Shown here: one piece after another, positions 33,271 through 60,122 of the stretch
How the letters are laid out: every line of letters starts with the position of its first letter
Numbering within the stretch: position 1 is the first letter of the stretch
From: Buchnera aphidicola (Tetraneura ulmi)
GTDB lineage: Bacteria; Pseudomonadota; Gammaproteobacteria; Enterobacterales; Enterobacteriaceae
Assembly: GCF_964058925.1 (NCBI RefSeq)
Contig: NZ_OZ060366.1
Coordinates: 286,308-350,307, forward strand
Length of the DNA stretch: 64,000 bases
Direction of reading: 5' to 3'
Made by a program: the position numbers and the translations under genes
The notes under the pieces: model-generated
Database searches by the model: none
What the model was told of the DNA's origin: nothing
The model's input: the letters and a program-made list of their open reading frames with translations, nothing else

Positions 33271-34899
33271 ATGCAAAAAATAAAAAATCAAAAAGTAAAC
33301 TTTATCAATTTACTAAAAAAAACAAACAATGAAATAAAAAAAAATAAATACAACAAAAAAATAAATAAAAAAAAAATCGAATACAAAAATTTATTTCTTA
33401 AAAAACCCGAATATTTATTCAATATAGTTGATGAGTTAATTTCAAAAAAACAAAAAGAAAAACAGGAAATTTTTCTTTATAAAAAATTAGAAAAAATAAT
33501 TGAAGAAAATCAAACTATTTTTTCTAATTTAATTCCTTATTTTTTTAAAAATTTGAATAAAAGAACAACTAACGGTGATATTGGAAAAAATTTTTTCTTG
33601 ATTGTACATAAAATTTCTAAAAAATTAAAAGAATTTAAAGAATCTATCTCAAAACTAGAATTTTTTTTAAATATGGAAATCAAATCGGAAATAAAAAAAA
33701 TTAATAAAAATTTATTATTAATTAAAAATATAAATTCAAAAATAAATAACATAAAAAATGAATCTAATTCTACTATCTTTTATGAAAAAGATACAATTAA
33801 AAATTTAATAACAAATAGACAAATTTTAACAAATCAATTAAATAAAATTGCTGGAATTAAATCTTTAGAAGAAAAAAATAATTTTTTTTTATTCTTAAAT
33901 AAAAAAAATATTTTATTAAAAAACTCTAAAAAAACAGATATTTTTCCTACTAATGGACTATATGTTTCTAATAACATATCCATTGGTTGCCAATTTTATA
34001 AAAAAAAAACAATGAAGATTTTAGATCCAATTATTACTACAGGAACTTTAAGTGCTATTTTAAAATTTAAAAACAAACAATTAGAATTAACAAAAAATAA
34101 AATTGGACAATTAATTTATAATTTTAGTAGTATTTTTAATACTATTAACCAACTTGGTTACGATATTGATTGTAAACCTGGAAAAAGAATTTTTTCAAGA
34201 TTACATCCAAAAATTATTCCCAACAAAAATAATAAAAGTAAAATAAAACTATTTCCAAAATGGAATGTTTTAAATATTTCTAACCCAAAGAATTACGAAA
34301 TTAAATTTTTAGGAAATAATAAATGGAAAATAAAAAACTTATTTAATGATAAAGAATTCATTAATTTTAAAGTTGAGAAGAAAAAAGATTCTTCATCATT
34401 ATTAAAATTTGATGGAATAGTAATTAAATATTTAAATAAATTTCTTAATCAAAATGACAAATATTTAATTGAATCAACTGCTACAGTAATCGATCAATTT
34501 TCTATTTCATCTAATATTACTGAAAAAACAAAAATCGCCTTTTTCGAAACAAACAATAAAGATCTTGACGATTATTCAAATTTTAAAAAAATGATTGATT
34601 TAGAAAATTATAAATTAATAAATAATAAAGAAACAATAGAAGAATCTTATGAAAATTATAAAAATAAAATAAAAAAAAAAATAGAAGAACTTAAATTAAA
34701 TCAAAAATTAAAAGTTAAAAAAGAAAAAATGTTATTAGAAAAAAATAAATATGAATTAAATAATAATTTTTCTTTACAAAATTTAAATAAAGAAAAAATA
34801 AATTTAGAAAAATCAAATTTGTCTAATTACAAATCATATTTACAACCATCGATCAATGAAATGAACGAAATAATTAAAATATTTAATTCTGATATTTAA
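33271..34899 (+). CDS. flgK: Flagellar hook-filament junction protein FlgK (highly diverged)
   Basis: Assigned by position after flgJ, by length (542; E. coli 547) and by weak similarity. Conserved pieces are LITNRQILTNQLNKIAGI, GQLIYNFSSIFNTINQLGYD, NPKNYEIKFLGNNKWKIKN, the DKYLIESTATV segment and a terminal helix ending INEMNEIIKIFNSDI. The N-terminal rod/hook signature normally shared by FlgK and other axial proteins is not recognisable; the first 150 residues are Lys/Asn/Ile-rich. No flgL follows; rne lies in the opposite direction. Confidence 0.82.
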   Translation: MQKIKNQKVNFINLLKKTNNEIKKNKYNKKINKKKIEYKNLFLKKPEYLFNIVDELISKKQKEKQEIFLYKKLEKIIEENQTIFSNLIPYFFKNLNKRTTNGDIGKNFFLIVHKISKKLKEFKESISKLEFFLNMEIKSEIKKINKNLLLIKNINSKINNIKNESNSTIFYEKDTIKNLITNRQILTNQLNKIAGIKSLEEKNNFFLFLNKKNILLKNSKKTDIFPTNGLYVSNNISIGCQFYKKKTMKILDPIITTGTLSAILKFKNKQLELTKNKIGQLIYNFSSIFNTINQLGYDIDCKPGKRIFSRLHPKIIPNKNNKSKIKLFPKWNVLNISNPKNYEIKFLGNNKWKIKNLFNDKEFINFKVEKKKDSSSLLKFDGIVIKYLNKFLNQNDKYLIESTATVIDQFSISSNITEKTKIAFFETNNKDLDDYSNFKKMIDLENYKLINNKETIEESYENYKNKIKKKIEELKLNQKLKVKKEKMLLEKNKYELNNNFSLQNLNKEKINLEKSNLSNYKSYLQPSINEMNEIIKIFNSDI

Positions 34900-35050
34900 A
34901 AAATAAATTTTTTATAAAATTAATTATATTAGTATTTTTTTTAAAAGTTAAAAATTTTGAAAAAATAAAATTAATCAAAAAAGAATAAAAAATTTAATAA
35001 ATAATAAACTCACTTAAAAAAATGTTTTTTAGTAAATTCTAAATCTAATT

Positions 35051-35088
35051 AAAAAAATATTTTAAAGAAAAATATTTCTCTTTAAAAT
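35051..35088 (-). terminator. rne terminator overlapping the rne stop codon
   Basis: ATTTTAAAGA (minus strand 35088-35079) pairs perfectly with TCTTTAAAAT (35068-35059) across a 10-nt loop, and is followed by A and seven T (35057-35051). The rne stop codon (35064-35062) sits inside the second arm, so the last codons of rne are part of the hairpin. Confidence 0.7.
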
Positions 35089-36315
35089 ACCTGTTCCACT
35101 ACATCTAGAACAAATATAATCGTTAATTTTATTTATTGAATGTTTAACTTTTTGTCTAGACATCTCTAACAATCCAAAACGAGAAATTAAACCAACTTGA
35201 ATACGAGCTTTATCTTTCTTTACCTCTTTTTTTATTTTATTTTCAACTATTCGTTGATGATGAATTAATTTCATATCAATAAAATCTATTACAATTAAAC
35301 CTCCTAAATTACGTAATCTAATTTGTCTTGATATTTCATCAGCTGCTTCTAAATTAGTATTTAACGCTGTTTCTTTCATTCTTGTTCCTTTATTAGATTG
35401 AAAAGAATTAACATCTATTACAGTTAATGCTTCTGTGGAATCAATAACAATTTCTCCTCCTGAAAATAATCTTATTTTTCTTTGAAATATAGAGGTAATT
35501 TGTGATTCAATTTGAAAATAACTAAATAATGGAATTTTTTTATTGAAAACTTTAATTTTATTTAAAAAATCCATACGACCTAAAATATTCATATTATGAT
35601 AAACATCATCTAATATTTTAAAATTATCAATTATAATTTCTTCTATGTCTTGATCTAAATCATCTCTAAAAGACCTATTAATAATGTTACTTTCTTGATC
35701 CAATAAAATTGGAGACGAATAAGTATTAGCTGTTTTAGTAATTACTTTCCATTGTTTTAATTTTTTATCCAAATCATTTTGTAAAATTTTTAAAGATTTT
35801 CCTAAACCAGCTGTTCTAATTATTAACCCCATATTTTTAGGTCGAATTAAATATTTAAAAATTTCTTTTAATTTATTTCGATGAACTTTTGCAATTTTTT
35901 TAGAAATTCCTCTAACATTAGGATTATTTGGCATTAAAATTAAAAAACTTCCAACTAAACTAATATATGTTGTTAATAAAGCACCTTTATTCATTTCTTC
36001 TTCTTTTTCTATCTGTACAATTAAATCCATTCCTTTTTTTAAAAAAAAAATATGATTATTAGTAACATTTCTTTTATAAAAATAATTTTTAGAAATTTCT
36101 TTAACAGGTAAAAAACCATTCCTTTTACAACCATAATTTATAAATACAGCATCTAAACTAGGTTCTAGTCTATCTATAATTCCTTTATATATATTTAATT
36201 TTTTTTCATTAATACTATTAGGTTTGTCTACATCTAAATTATATAATTTTTTTCCATCTACTAAAGCTATTCTCCATTCTTTAGAATTAATAGCATTTAT
36301 TAACATTCTTTTCAT
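35062..36315 (-). CDS. rne: Ribonuclease E, truncated to the core catalytic region
   Basis: It has 417 residues; E. coli RNase E has 1061. Present are MKRMLINAINSKEWRIALVD, the S1 domain (about 35-125, FINYGCKRNGFLPVKEI), the 5' sensor region (GLIIRTAGLGKS), and the DNase-I-like catalytic part. That part has Asp in VIDVNSFQSNKG and Asp in LIVIDFIDM, the two metal ligands. FGLLEMSRQ follows, then the zinc-link CSRCSGTG near 404-411. It then ends after GILKRNIFL. The small domain (E. coli ~415-529) and the degradosome scaffold are missing. Location beside rluC identifies it as rne rather than rng. It is divergent from rluC. Confidence 0.93.
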   Translation of the reverse strand: MKRMLINAINSKEWRIALVDGKKLYNLDVDKPNSINEKKLNIYKGIIDRLEPSLDAVFINYGCKRNGFLPVKEISKNYFYKRNVTNNHIFFLKKGMDLIVQIEKEEEMNKGALLTTYISLVGSFLILMPNNPNVRGISKKIAKVHRNKLKEIFKYLIRPKNMGLIIRTAGLGKSLKILQNDLDKKLKQWKVITKTANTYSSPILLDQESNIINRSFRDDLDQDIEEIIIDNFKILDDVYHNMNILGRMDFLNKIKVFNKKIPLFSYFQIESQITSIFQRKIRLFSGGEIVIDSTEALTVIDVNSFQSNKGTRMKETALNTNLEAADEISRQIRLRNLGGLIVIDFIDMKLIHHQRIVENKIKKEVKKDKARIQVGLISRFGLLEMSRQKVKHSINKINDYICSRCSGTGILKRNIFL

Positions 36316-36646: not shown

Positions 36647-37612
36647 ATGATAAAAACAACAAAAAAACCTCATTTTTTAAATGTAACTGAACAAATGATT
36701 CCACAAAGAATTGATAATTTTTTAATTTCTTATATGAAATTACTATCAAAAAATAAAATATATAAAATTTTAAGAAAGGGAAATGTTCGAGTAAATAAAA
36801 AAAGAGTTCTTCCAAAATACAAATTAAAAATTGGAGATAAAATTAGAATTCCTCCAATAAAAAAACAATATGTAAATACTATTAAAAAAAAAAATATACA
36901 AAAAAATACAGACAAAAAACTACTAAAAAAAATTTTATTTGAGGATGATGATTTAATTATTATAAATAAACCATCTGGAATAGCAGTACATGGAGGAAGC
37001 GGTATTTCAACAGGAATTATAGAAAAATTTCGTTTATTAAGACCATTATGCAAAAATTTAGAATTAGTACATCGATTAGATAAAGAAACTTCCGGTTTAC
37101 TAATTATGTCAAAAAAAAGATTTGCTCTAAACTTTTTGCATGAACAAATAAGAAATAAAAAAATTAAAAAAAAATATATAGCATTAGTTCATGGAAATTG
37201 GCCTAATTCAACAAATATAATTAATTTTCCACTATTAAAAAAAAAATTGAATATAAATAAAAACAAAAAAAAAGTATGCGTGCACAAACTTGGAAAACCA
37301 TCAGAAACACATTTTTTTGTAAAAAAAAGATTCAAAAATAACACTACTCTTGTTTATATATATCCTATAACTGGTAGAACACATCAAATTAGAGTCCATT
37401 CTGCACATTTAAATTCACCAATTGTTTTTGATAATCGTTATGGTTCTAAAACACTTGACAGAAAAATAAAAAAAACTAATGGTCCATTTCATTTACTATT
37501 ACATGCAAAAGAAATACAATTTATACATCCAAAAAATAAAAAAAAAATTATATTATCAGCTCCTTTAGATAAAAAATTTAAAAATTATTTGGAATACTTA
37601 TATAAAATTTAA
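36647..37612 (+). CDS. rluC: 23S rRNA pseudouridine synthase C
   Basis: Makes pseudouridines 955, 2504 and 2580 in 23S rRNA. It has 321 residues (E. coli 319). It has an N-terminal S4 domain (about 18-80, RIDNFLISYMKLLSKNKIYK), then the catalytic fold with NKPSGIAVHGGSG and VHRLDKETSGLLIMSK (catalytic Asp near 145). YPITGRTHQIRVHSAHLN also matches the RluA family. It heads rluC-rpmF-fabD-fabG-acpP, as in the E. coli neighbourhood. Confidence 0.95.
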   Translation: MIKTTKKPHFLNVTEQMIPQRIDNFLISYMKLLSKNKIYKILRKGNVRVNKKRVLPKYKLKIGDKIRIPPIKKQYVNTIKKKNIQKNTDKKLLKKILFEDDDLIIINKPSGIAVHGGSGISTGIIEKFRLLRPLCKNLELVHRLDKETSGLLIMSKKRFALNFLHEQIRNKKIKKKYIALVHGNWPNSTNIINFPLLKKKLNINKNKKKVCVHKLGKPSETHFFVKKRFKNNTTLVYIYPITGRTHQIRVHSAHLNSPIVFDNRYGSKTLDRKIKKTNGPFHLLLHAKEIQFIHPKNKKKIILSAPLDKKFKNYLEYLYKI

Positions 37613-37996: not shown

Positions 37997-38931
37997 ATGA
38001 AATTTGCAATGATATTTCCAGGTCAAGGTATTCAAAGAATAGATATATTATTTGAATTATCTAAAAGTTTTCCTATGATTAGGAATACTTTCGATGAAGC
38101 TTCCAACTATATTAATTATAATTTATGGGAATATATTAGTAAAAATCATAAAAATAATTTAACAAATAACAAATATACACCAGCATTGATATTAACAAGT
38201 TCAGTTTCTCTTTATTATATATGGAAAAAAAAAATAAAAAAAAACCTAATATGGTGGCAGGTCATAGTTTAGGAGAATATTCAGCATTAGTTTGTTCCAA
38301 TTCTATTTCTTTCAAAGATGGATTAAACATTGTTGTAAAAAGAAATAAATTTATGAAAGAAGCAGCAAAAAATAATCCAGGTTCTATGATGGCAATAATT
38401 GGAATAAAAGAAAATATAATAAAAAAAATTTGTAATATTTTTTTTAAAAATGAGCTTGTTGCTATTTCCAGTGTAAATTCTGAAACTGAAATTGTTGTAT
38501 CTGGAAATAAAAAAAAATTATATAAAATAGAAAAAATATGCAAATTATTAGGAGCTAAAGCTGTTTTTCATTTATCAATTAATATTCCATCTCATTGTTC
38601 TTTAATGAAAAGCGCATCAAAAAAATTTTCTAAATTTTTAAATAATTTTATTTTTAGAAAACCTGATTTTCCAATTATCAATAATGTTGATATAAAATAT
38701 GAAAAATCTGATAAAAAAATAAAAAAAGCTCTAATAAGACAATTAATAGAACCAATAAACTGGAAAAAAAGTATAAATTTTATTTTAAAAAATAAAATTT
38801 TTTTATTTCTAGAAGTTGGAACTAGTAGAGTGCTATCAAATTTAAATAAAAATATAAAAAATTCTATTTCTATTTCTTTAAATGACAAAAAAAATTTTTT
38901 TTTAAATAATAAGAAATTAATTAGGAAGTAA
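37997..38931 (+). CDS. fabD: Malonyl-CoA:ACP transacylase FabD, frameshifted in a poly(A) tract
   Basis: Loads malonate on ACP. The first frame (37997-38272) encodes MKFAMIFPGQGIQ through LTSSVSLYYIWKKK and then runs out of frame. The second frame resumes with PNMVAGHSLGEYSALVCS, containing the catalytic Ser of GHSLG, and continues to the end with the active-site His region IPSHCSLM and QLIEPINWKKSI. The shift falls in A10 (38225-38234)-T-A9 (38236-38244). One added A gives IWKKKNKKKPNMVAGHSLGE, aligned without gaps to E. coli FabD (about 310 residues in all). All catalytic residues survive. Slippage rescue, recent inactivation or an undercall are possible. Confidence 0.88.
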
Positions 38932-55759: not shown

Positions 55760-57619
55760 TTATTCTTGATAAGAACGAATTCTATTTTTATTCTTTCCTA
55801 TAATCGATTTTTTAGAATTAATAAATTGTTTCGTTGATACTGAAAACCTACTATTATTAATAGAATTTTTTCTAGAATAAATCTGATTAGTATTAGATTT
55901 GTTTTTTAAATTATTAAAACTATATTTTTTTTTATTACTACGAAATTTAATATCATTTAACAATTTTAAATTTATTAACTTATTTAATATACGAGTATTA
56001 GAAAATAATTTTAAAAAATCTTGAGATAAAAATACTGGTAATTCAACCGTAGAAAATGAAGGAAAAATTTTAACACTACCTATCTTACGACTATTAATAT
56101 TACCTTCATTAGCAATTGTTCCAACAATATGACGAACTTCTATTCCATCATTTCTACCTACTTCTAATCTATAAAGATTCATGTTATTATTAATGCTTCT
56201 TTTTTCTTTTCCAAATTTTTTAGAATAAATAGAATTACTAAATTTATTCCTTAAAAATGTTTTTTTATTAGAAAAATTTTGAAAATTTTTAATAAAAAGA
56301 TCAGGTTTTACTATTAATGATCTTTCTCCCTGAGCCATTTTTAACAAAGCTGCTGCTAATTTTTCGATACTCAAATCCGTCTCTGGCTTTATTTTTTCTA
56401 ATAATTTACTATATTCTTCTAAATCTTTACTTTTTAATTGAAATTTTACTTTTTCAGAAAATTTTTTTAAACGACAAGAAGTTAATAATTCTACATTTGG
56501 TAATTTTACTTCTTTAATATTTAATTTTACAATCCTTTCAATATTACGTAATAAACGACGTTCTCTTTGTTCTACAAACAATAAAGCTCTTCCAGTTCTT
56601 CCTGCTCTTCCAGTACGACCAATTCTATGTACGTAAGATTCAGCATCCATAGGTATATCATAATTAATAACGAAACTGATTCTATCTACATCCAACCCTC
56701 TTGCTGCTACATCAGTTGCAATTAAAATATCTAATCTTCCATTTTTTAAACGTTCTAAGGTTTGTTCTCTTAATGTTTGATTCATATCACCATTTAAAGC
56801 AGCACTATTATATCCATTTTTTTCTAATGCTTCAGAAACTTCTAAAGTTGCATTTTTTGTACGAACAAAAATGATGACTGCTGAAAAATCTTCCACTTCT
56901 AAAAATCTAATTAAACCATCTGTCTTTCTTCCATATACAATCCAATAACTTTGTTTAATATCAGGTCTAGTCGTAATATTTGATTGTATTTTTATTTCTT
57001 TAGGATTTTTCATAAATCTTCTCGAAATACGACGAATTATTTCAGGCATGGTTGCAGAAAAAAGTGCTGTTTGATGATCTTTCGGTATATTAGACATAAT
57101 TGATTCTACGTCTTCAATAAAACCCATTCGTAGCATTTCGTCAGCTTCATCTAAAACTAATCCTTGTAATTTAGATAAGTTCAATGTACCTCTTTTTAAA
57201 TGATCTAATAATCTACCTGGTGTACCTACAACAATCTGAGAACCATTTCTTAAAGATTTTAGTTGCACTTCATATCTTTGACCTCCGTATAAAGCAGTAA
57301 CATTAATTCCGTTTATATATTTTGAAAATACCGAAAATGCTTCTGCAACTTGTATTGCTAATTCTCTTGTAGGAGTTAAAACCAAAATTTGGGGGAATTT
57401 TAAAGATAAATTAATATTTTGCAACAATGGCAAAGAAAAAGCAGCAGTTTTACCACTACCTGTTTGTGCCATTCCTAATACATCTTTCCCTTCTAAAAGA
57501 TAAGGTATACAAGCATTTTGAATCGGAGAAGGTTTTACATAACCAATTTCATTCAATGCTTTCATAATCGAAGGTTTAAAATTAAAAACAGAAAACGTAA
57601 TTTTTTCAGTACGAGTCAT
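55760..57619 (-). CDS. deaD: DEAD-box ATP-dependent RNA helicase DeaD (CsdA)
   Basis: RNA helicase for ribosome assembly and mRNA decay at low temperature. Motifs in order are the Q motif (GYVKPSPIQ), [22 protein letters not shown] (VLDEADEML), SAT, ARGLD and HRIGRTGR. The C-terminal RNA-binding domain ([19 protein letters not shown]) is kept. The tail is Asn/Lys/Ser-rich instead of Arg/Gly-rich. Two in-frame ATGs exist (57628, 57619). The second gives [12 protein letters not shown], closer to the family start; GAGG lies 3 and 12 bases upstream of them. It has about 619 residues (E. coli 629). Confidence 0.95.
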
Positions 57620-57628
57620 GTAGTACAT

Positions 57629-58031: not shown

Positions 58032-60122
58032 TTATTTTTTTATTGTTTCTTTCATACTTAATCGCAACCTTCCTTGTCTATCTATTTCTAAAACCTTTAC
58101 AGATATTCTTTGATTAACCTTAAGATAATCAGAAATCTTACCTATTCTATTTTTTGAAATTTCAGATATGTGAACTAATCCTTCTTTCCCTATTCCAATA
58201 GAAACAAAAACTCCAAAATCAACAATTCTTGTTATTTTTCCTAAATAAATAGTACCAACTTCAATTTCTGCTGTAATTTCTTTTATTCTTCTAATAGCAT
58301 TTTTTGCTTTTTTTTCTATTATAGATGATATTCTTACTGTTCCATCATCTGAAATCTCAATCGTAGTTCCAGTTTCTTCAGTCAACATACGAATAACAGA
58401 ACCTCCCTTTCCTATCAAATCTTTTATCTTTTCTGGATTAATTTTTAATATATAAATTCTAGGAGCAAAAATTGAAATGTCTAATTTTGGATATTTTATT
58501 ACTTTTTCCATAATATCTAGTATATGCAAACGAGAAACTTTAGCTTGTAATAACGATAATCTAATTATTTTTATATTTATTCCTTCAATTTTCATGTCCA
58601 TTTGTAAAGAAGTTATTCCATCTCTTCCACCAGCAACTTTAAAATCCATGTCTCCTAAATGGTCTTCATCTCCTATAATATCAGAAAGTATTACAAATTT
58701 ATCATCTTCTTTAATTAACCCCATGGCTATTCCTGCAACAGAAGATTTGATAGGAACTCCTGCATCCATTAATGCTAAAGAAGCACCACATACTGATGCC
58801 ATTGAAGAAGAACCATTTGATTCAGTAATTTCAGAAACTATTCTTATAGTATATGGAAATTCTTCAATTCTAGGCATAACTGCAGATAAACTTTTTTTTG
58901 CAAGTTTTCCATGTCCTATTTCTCTTCTTTTAGGAGATCCTATAACTCCTATTTCACCTACAGCATAGGGAGGAAAATTATAATGAAAAAGAAAATTTTC
59001 TGTTCTATCTCCACCAAGAAGCTCATCTAAACTTTGAGCATCTCTAGCTGTCCCTAAAGTTGTAGTAACTAACGATTGTGTTTCTCCTCTAGTAAATAAA
59101 GCTGATCCATGAGTTCTTGGAAGAATACCAATTCTAGCATCTAATTTTCGTATTTCATTAAATTTTCTTCCATCTATTCTTGTACCTTTTTTTAAAATTT
59201 TATGTCTTACTATATTTTTTTCTAACTCTTGAAATAAATTTTCTATTTCTAATTCATTATTTATAATATTTTCATTACACAATGTTTCTATCAATTCTGA
59301 TTTGATTATATTTAATTTATCATGTCTACTCTTCTTTTCTAAAATTTTATAAGCATCACTAATTTTCCCTTCAACTAATGAAGATACTTTCAAATATAAA
59401 GAATAATTCATTTGAAAATCTTGCATATTCCAATTTTTTTTTTCTTTTTCATTAGATAGAGCACAAATGTTATCAATAACAATTTGTTGAGCTTTATGGC
59501 CGAATGAAATAGCATTTAAAATTTCTTCTTCACTCAACATATTTGATTCTGCTTCTACCATTAATATGGCCTTTTTAGTTCCTGATAATACTAAATCTAG
59601 TTTACTATTTTTCATTTCTTCCATAGTAGGATTCAAAACATATTCTTTATCTATATAAGCTACTCTAGAAGCTGCTATTGGACCCAAAAACGGTATTCCA
59701 GAAAAACTTAAAGCTGCTGAAGCTCCAATAATTGCTACGATATCTGGATTAACTTTAGGATTTACCGAAACTACAGTTGCTATAATTTGTATGTTATTAG
59801 AAAATCCCTTCGGAAACAAAGGACGAATAGGACGATCAATAAGCCTAGCAATCAATATTTCATTTTCACTAGGTCTTCCTTCTCTTCTAAAAAAACCACC
59901 TGGTATTTTTCCAGCTGCATATGTTCTTTCTTGATAACTGATAGTCAATGGCAAATAATTAGTTTTTATTTGTTGTTTTTTTTCTTCAACTACAGTTACC
60001 AAAACAGATGTATCATTCATATTTATCATGATAGCAGCAGTTGCCTGTCTAGCTAAAATTCCTGTTTCTATAGTAACAGTATGTTCTCCATACTTAAATT
60101 TACGTACAATAGGATTAAACAA
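58032..60122 (-). CDS. pnp: Polyribonucleotide nucleotidyltransferase (PNPase)
   Basis: 3'-5' phosphorolytic exoribonuclease. It has 696 residues (E. coli 711). Two RNase PH domains: the first with [20 protein letters not shown] and [18 protein letters not shown], the second with [20 protein letters not shown] and [20 protein letters not shown] (catalytic Asp). A KH domain ([20 protein letters not shown]) and S1 domain ([20 protein letters not shown]) follow. The Ala/Pro-rich C-terminal tail of E. coli is missing. rpsO lies upstream, the conserved rpsO-pnp order. Confidence 0.97.

What the first reader, a model, noticed from the sequence alone, without database searches (positions are those of the whole stretch)
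35051..36315. RNase E reduced to 417 residues, with its stop codon inside the transcription terminator
The protein ends nine residues after the zinc-link CSRCSGTG. It therefore lacks the small domain that helps build the tetramer, and all of the degradosome scaffold that binds PNPase, helicase and enolase. Metal-ligand Asp residues and the zinc cysteines remain. The stop codon lies in the second arm of a perfect 10-bp hairpin followed by seven T, so the gene appears to have adapted to its new end. DeaD and PNPase are encoded nearby but could not dock on such an RNase E.
Basis: partly seen in the sequence, partly recalled or inferred. Interest (0 to 1): 0.65.

Follow-up and report, generated by a model that had tools for sequence, protein, structure and literature searches.

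The report
Buchnera RNase E cut to its core
This aphid symbiont has lost about 60% of its main RNA-cutting enzyme and keeps only the catalytic core; several other insect symbionts have independently cut the same enzyme back to almost the same point, which suggests the core alone is enough for life inside an insect.

Summary
It is the only RNase E/G gene in the 535,734-bp Buchnera genome, and no small domain is encoded elsewhere. The stop codon lies in the second arm of an A-U hairpin (17 pairs, z = -5.5).

It is not unique. Among about 75 reduced genomes read, RNase E is cut back to E. coli positions 391-416 in at least four independent lineages, probably five, including Buchnera of Baizongia and Periphyllus and the ant symbiont Westeberhardia. 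No readable copy ends before 391, close to the 395-residue minimum known from E. coli. Some Buchnera have no rne at all.

Catalytic residues persist. E12, E13, R391 and E398, near-invariant in longer enzymes, change in truncated ones. The core evolves 3.7 times faster here than in long relatives, yet has no stops where neutral drift predicts about 19.

Best reading: a working but relaxed minimal RNase E, probably a dimer without degradosome docking or the structured-RNA groove. The terminator 'adaptation' is not supported.

The parts
35062..36315 (-). rne: RNase E core, 417 aa (RNase H, S1, 5'-sensor and DNase I subdomains plus zinc link); no small domain, no scaffold
   Evidence: ORF; PF10150; phmmer to E. 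coli RNase E 1e-147; AlphaFold2 mean pLDDT 85, residues 395-402 and 406-417 disordered; Foldseek to 2bx2 and 6g63
35089..35112 (-). zinc-link codons CSRCSGTG (residues 402-409)
   Evidence: sequence and alignment
35055..35092 (-). A-U hairpin of 17 pairs with a 4-nt loop; the rne stop codon 35064-35062 is in its second arm; T run reaches to 35051; possible intrinsic terminator
   Evidence: RNA fold z = -5.5, 0 of 200 shuffles as good; stem scan
34900..35061 (.). rne-flgK spacer; no trace of the small domain or scaffold
   Evidence: tblastn with eight small-domain queries finds nothing beyond the zinc link itself
33271..34899 (+). flgK, converging on rne; same gene order as E. coli flgK-flgL / rne / rluC
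   Evidence: PF22638; E. coli order
36647..37612 (+). rluC, divergent neighbour, used as an independent tree marker
   Evidence: PF00849 and PF01479; tree
58032..60122 (-). pnp (PNPase), a degradosome partner in E. coli
   Evidence: RNase_PH, KH and S1 domains
55760..57628 (-). deaD RNA helicase
   Evidence: DEAD, DeaD_dimer and DbpA domains

Best explanation
This is a genuine and still selected RNase E reduced to its minimal catalytic unit. SHOWN by sequence: the open frame, all catalytic and substrate-binding residues and both zinc cysteines are kept; the small domain and the scaffold are absent from the genome; the same cut has arisen repeatedly in insect symbionts. INFERRED: the enzyme is expressed and cuts single-stranded A/U-rich RNA at the D303/D346 metal site within a DNase I-domain dimer, which may still share a zinc through C402 and C405. 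It cannot form the tetramer, because the interface that joins two dimers is the missing small domain. It cannot use the composite RNase H/small-domain groove that captures structured RNA, nor recruit PNPase. It therefore should depend on 5'-monophosphate sensing and single-strand binding, leaving PNPase to act as a free exonuclease. It arose by loss of the scaffold and of the small domain under relaxed selection. Residues that tracked the small domain (E12, E13, R391, E398) then changed. In some lineages the core too is eventually lost.
For: Single copy, full core, no small domain elsewhere, with positive controls. Catalytic, 5'-sensor and S1 residues identical in all eight truncated enzymes tabulated, apart from V128I in three. 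No stops where neutral drift predicts 9 or more. Truncated forms are retained across a genus: in g127, 10 of 11 genomes have an rne match, all with frames of 393-409 codons; in g45, 10 of 11 genomes have a match, though G301 is broken and three others have a displaced start. dN/dS is below 1 in every truncated pair, 0.11-0.73. C-termini pile up at 391-393 and 402-416 and none is shorter; the model is well ordered to about residue 390 and disordered after. Truncations independent of this one by genus and by RluC tree: g93 (long sister G206), Westeberhardia G158 (long sisters G008, G245), plus g45 and g127. E12, E13 and R391 changed in truncated but not in equally diverged long enzymes: 3 columns at p<=0.01 against 0.17 in label permutations, 1% of permutations as many. 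Literature: Caruthers et al. 2006 (doi 10.1074/jbc.M602467200), whose title, as cited in PMC2948425, states that core functions are retained by a minimal peptide lacking the tetramer domain; domain map in PMC2631609.
Against: The core in this lineage evolves 3.7 times faster than in its genus-mates, against a median of about 1.1 for 14 nearby genes, so constraint is clearly relaxed. Several Buchnera lack rne altogether, so it may be only a stage of decay. The RNase H/small-domain groove is reported essential for E. coli growth (PMC9841416), and PMC2631609 says mutating or deleting the zinc motif substantially reduces activity. No expression or activity data exist here. Dimerisation is not tested, and the label permutations ignore phylogeny.
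Confidence: 0.7

Rival explanations
1. A decaying gene: the scaffold and small domain are lost and the core is drifting towards the complete loss already seen in other Buchnera, with little remaining function.
For: Accelerated core evolution; elevated dN/dS of 0.26-0.73 in most truncated pairs against 0.04-0.15 in long pairs; complete loss in nine of the surveyed genomes plus G310; a broken copy in G301 and a frameshift in Formosaphis.
Against: All active-site residues and the whole frame are kept despite about 40% amino-acid change; the minimal form persists across about ten genomes of g127; ends stop at the fold boundary.
Confidence: 0.24
2. Sequencing or assembly error (homopolymer frameshift or misjoin) hides a longer gene.
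For: AT-rich genome with a poly(A) frame break elsewhere in the window (fabD).
Against: No small-domain or scaffold sequence follows in any frame, nor elsewhere in a 99.99%-complete assembly; similar ends occur in independently sequenced genomes.
Confidence: 0.02
3. The missing function is supplied in trans, by a separate unrecognised small domain, another RNase of the symbiont, or a host protein.
For: Other Buchnera survive with no rne at all, so some replacement or dispensability must exist there.
Against: No small-domain match in the genome; no RNase G. Host import is untested.
Confidence: 0.04

Closest known systems
E. coli RNase E catalytic domain, residues 1-529 (PDB 2bx2, 2vmk, 6g63)
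   Same: 57% identity across residues 1-416; same subdomains, metal site, 5' sensor and zinc motif
   Different: No small domain (415-510 in E. coli), so no dimer-of-dimers interface and no K433/R488/R490 half of the duplex groove; no scaffold
Engineered minimal E. coli / H. influenzae RNase E (Caruthers et al. 2006)
   Same: Lacks the tetramer-forming region; boundary of about 395 residues
   Different: Natural rather than engineered; keeps the zinc link; separated by 43% amino-acid change and by altered E12, R391 and E398. The 395-residue figure is from my knowledge of the abstract; only its title was read here
Truncated RNase E of Buchnera of Baizongia pistaciae (G046), Periphyllus aceris (G229), and Westeberhardia cardiocondylae Cmi (G158)
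   Same: End at E. coli 402-413 with no small domain
   Different: Other end points; the Baizongia symbiont lacks the first zinc cysteine; several g127 relatives lack the zinc link entirely.
RNase G
   Same: Lacks the scaffold; lacks segments that stabilise the dimer-dimer interface; groove residues not conserved (PMC2948425, PMC9841416)
   Different: This gene is the rne orthologue by position (flgK-rne-rluC) and sequence; RNase G keeps a C-terminal part after the zinc motif (from my knowledge)

Membership tests
RNase E/G family (PF10150) | Match to the family profile over its full length | tested here: met
   1-270/270, 1.1e-84
RNase E/G family (PF10150) | Metal ligands D303 and D346 with N305 | tested here: met
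RNase E/G family (PF10150) | 5' sensor (R169, T170) and S1 pocket (F57, F67, K112) | tested here: met
RNase E (orthologue of E. coli rne) | Conserved gene position flgK/flgL-rne-rluC | tested here: met
RNase E (orthologue of E. coli rne) | Zinc link CPxCxGxG | tested here: met
   CSRCSGTG, both Cys; the Pro is Ser, as in the genus-mates
RNase E catalytic tetramer | Small domain (415-510) for the dimer-dimer interface | tested here: not met
   absent from gene and genome, positive controls found
RNase E catalytic tetramer | Composite duplex-binding groove | tested here: not met
   small-domain half absent; in the RNase H half R3 and Q270 kept, Q22K, H268Y, Y269F
RNA degradosome scaffold | C-terminal binding sites for PNPase, enolase and helicase | tested here: not met
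   protein ends at 417; PNPase-binding tail present in genus-mates
Minimal RNase E | Endonuclease activity without the tetramer | not testable with these tools
   needs purified protein

The most novel reading that the evidence does not exclude
Insect symbionts have repeatedly and independently eroded RNase E to the smallest unit that still works (ending at E. coli 391-416). Loss of the small domain released a specific set of core residues (E12, E13, R391, E398), marking an unrecognised interface. Tetramer formation, the structured-RNA groove and the degradosome are thus dispensable in nature, in some lineages as a step towards life with no RNase E at all.
Probability: 0.5. Interest if true: 0.68.

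Novelty: new variant of a known kind. Interest (0 to 1): 0.56.

Why it matters
RNase E is essential in E. coli, and both its tetramer and its structured-RNA groove are held to matter. A natural series running from full length, through core only, to no gene, across related genomes, shows which parts can be dispensed with and in what order. It gives natural minimal enzymes for testing whether catalysis needs the tetramer, and points to residues that may contact the small domain. It also raises the question of how Buchnera without any RNase E/G mature 5S rRNA and tRNA.

Tried and rejected
The first genome-contig scan with the window protein found nothing; a DNA-pattern scan gave names for some genomes but left out most Buchnera. 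The plasmid look-up identified Formosaphis and Cinara confinis hosts and only a close relative for our genome, pBTc2. I first misread a change in G128/G229 as loss of catalytic D346; it is D349N and D346 is intact (note). Considered and rejected: terminator hairpin as an adaptation shared by truncated genes; erosion of the remaining groove residues as specific to truncated forms, since fast-evolving long forms lose them too. No open-access paper on truncated or absent rne in Buchnera was found, but the key Buchnera gene-loss paper (Chong et al. 2019) is not held, so the novelty of the losses is unproven. Dimer or tetramer modelling was not possible with the tools.

Full report
WHAT IS THERE. 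The window belongs to a Buchnera genome of 535,734 bp in three contigs. Its 3,007-bp trpEG plasmid is 80% identical to Buchnera plasmid pBTc2; from memory pBTc2 is from the aphid Tetraneura caerulescens. The rne gene runs 36315-35062 on the minus strand and encodes 417 residues. It matches the whole RNase_E_G profile and E. coli RNase E 1-416 at 57% identity. It is the only RNase E/G gene in the genome. The zinc motif CSRCSGTG is residues 402-409, and eight residues follow. A small-domain query finds nothing in this genome but finds G001, G002 and G218, and nothing of it remains between rne and flgK.

THE HAIRPIN. The stop codon 35064-35062 lies in the second arm of a 17-pair hairpin (11 consecutive Watson-Crick pairs, all but one of them A-U) followed by a T run. 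It is the longest stem over a stop codon among 50 genes of the window, but 9 of 50 have stems of 10 or more pairs. Of 18 other truncated rne genes none has a comparable one. It may well terminate transcription; that it shows adaptation to a new end is not supported.

IT IS ONE OF MANY. Among 295 genomes of the family, short or missing rne is a matter of the reduced symbionts; the large genomes in the list printed have frames near 1000 codons. I read the gene in 61 reduced genomes plus fifteen more from two genera. The two genus-mates, which group with our genome on an RluC tree with strong support (100/98), have 974-residue enzymes. Truncated enzymes with no small domain occur in g45 (including G046, whose 615,980-bp chromosome and 2,399-bp plasmid are those I recall for Buchnera of Baizongia pistaciae), g127 (including Buchnera of Periphyllus aceris), g93 (with a long sister, G206), and the ant symbiont Westeberhardia Cmi (with long sisters). 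Buchnera of Formosaphis micheliae has a recent frameshift at 429 with the small domain still readable. With the window's gene, that is at least four and probably five independent clean truncations; g45 and g127 fall in one weakly supported group that also holds a long form. Expressed in E. coli positions, the ends lie at 391-393 (seven), 402-416 (twelve), 429-460 (five, mostly with other damage), then 490-508 and beyond. None lies before 391, although a broken copy (G301) and outright losses exist; a copy ending earlier would tend to be counted as broken, so the floor is partly a matter of definition.

COMPLETE LOSS. No RNase E/G was found in G012 (Buchnera of Cinara confinis), G160, G247, G061, G186, G263, G102, G179 or G188, nor in G310. 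In most of the first nine, rluC is present with flg genes or a bare spacer where rne should be.

IS THE CORE FUNCTIONAL? Against neutrality: simulated drift to the observed divergence gives 18.7 stops on average, minimum 9, and we see none. F57, F67, K112, R169, T170, D303, N305 and D346 are kept in all eight truncated enzymes tabulated. dN/dS stays below 1 in every truncated pair (the simple method overstates it in AT-rich DNA). Against full constraint: the branch to the window's gene is 3.7 times the mates' branch for the rne core, against a median near 1.1 and maximum 2.2 for 14 neighbouring genes. The AlphaFold2 model is ordered to about residue 390, with residues 395-402 and 406-417 below pLDDT 50, and matches the E. 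coli crystal structures.

A SIGNATURE OF THE MISSING DOMAIN. I took 173 columns conserved in slowly evolving long enzymes and compared eight truncated with twelve strongly diverged long enzymes (mean deviations 34 and 25 per sequence). Three columns stood out at p <= 0.01: E12, R391 and E13; permuted labels gave 0.17 on average and reached three in 1%. E398 behaves alike. The recently broken Formosaphis copy still has all four, as expected if they change only after the domain is lost. These residues may contact or position the small domain; I could not measure this on coordinates, and the permutation ignores relatedness. By contrast, the RNase H half of the duplex groove is lost as often in fast-evolving long enzymes.

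MECHANISM. In E. coli the large domain is 1-400 and the small domain 415-510, with the zinc motif between; DNase I subdomains form the active dimer and small domains join two dimers (PMC2631609). [quoted passage not shown] coli (PMC6202311, PMC9841416). The truncated enzyme should therefore be a dimer, perhaps zinc-linked, that cuts single-stranded and 5'-monophosphorylated RNA and handles structured precursors less well. Caruthers et al. 2006 report, by title, a minimal peptide without the tetramer domain that retains core functions. The genus-mates retain a PNPase-binding tail (AAGGHVAKNRSSS and a SSAPVTK motif) in an otherwise mostly unrecognisable scaffold, so the window's enzyme has lost PNPase docking that its relatives plausibly have; helicase docking is not recognisable even in them.

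VERDICT. Observation confirmed; interpretation partly supported. The finding is stronger as part of a recurrent series than as an isolated curiosity, and weaker in its terminator argument. It is a new variant of a known enzyme. Whether earlier annotation papers have already noted these truncations could not be checked.

Noticed in passing
37997-38931 (+): fabD is split into two overlapping frames (37997-38272 and 38221-38931) at neighbouring runs of A; fabD is normally essential, so polymerase slippage at poly(A) or a sequencing error is likely.
   Followed up: partly
L089-L097 (G012, G188, G186, G061, G102, G160, G247, G263, G179): rne is completely missing next to rluC in these Buchnera genomes, with no RNase E/G elsewhere; how they process 5S rRNA and tRNA is unexplained.
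   Followed up: partly
L214/L215 (G301), L208 (G300), L209 (G297), L206 (G295): Within g45 one rne copy is broken (G301) and others have their first ~30 codons out of the main frame (G295, G297, G300), possibly rescued by slippage at poly(A).
   Followed up: partly
L087 (G229), L088 (G128): g127 RNase E has D349N and in several members no zinc link at all, yet keeps D303 and D346.
   Followed up: partly
33271-34899 (+): The flgK-like protein lacks a recognisable FlgK N-terminus; only the FlgK_D1 helical domain matches.
   Followed up: no
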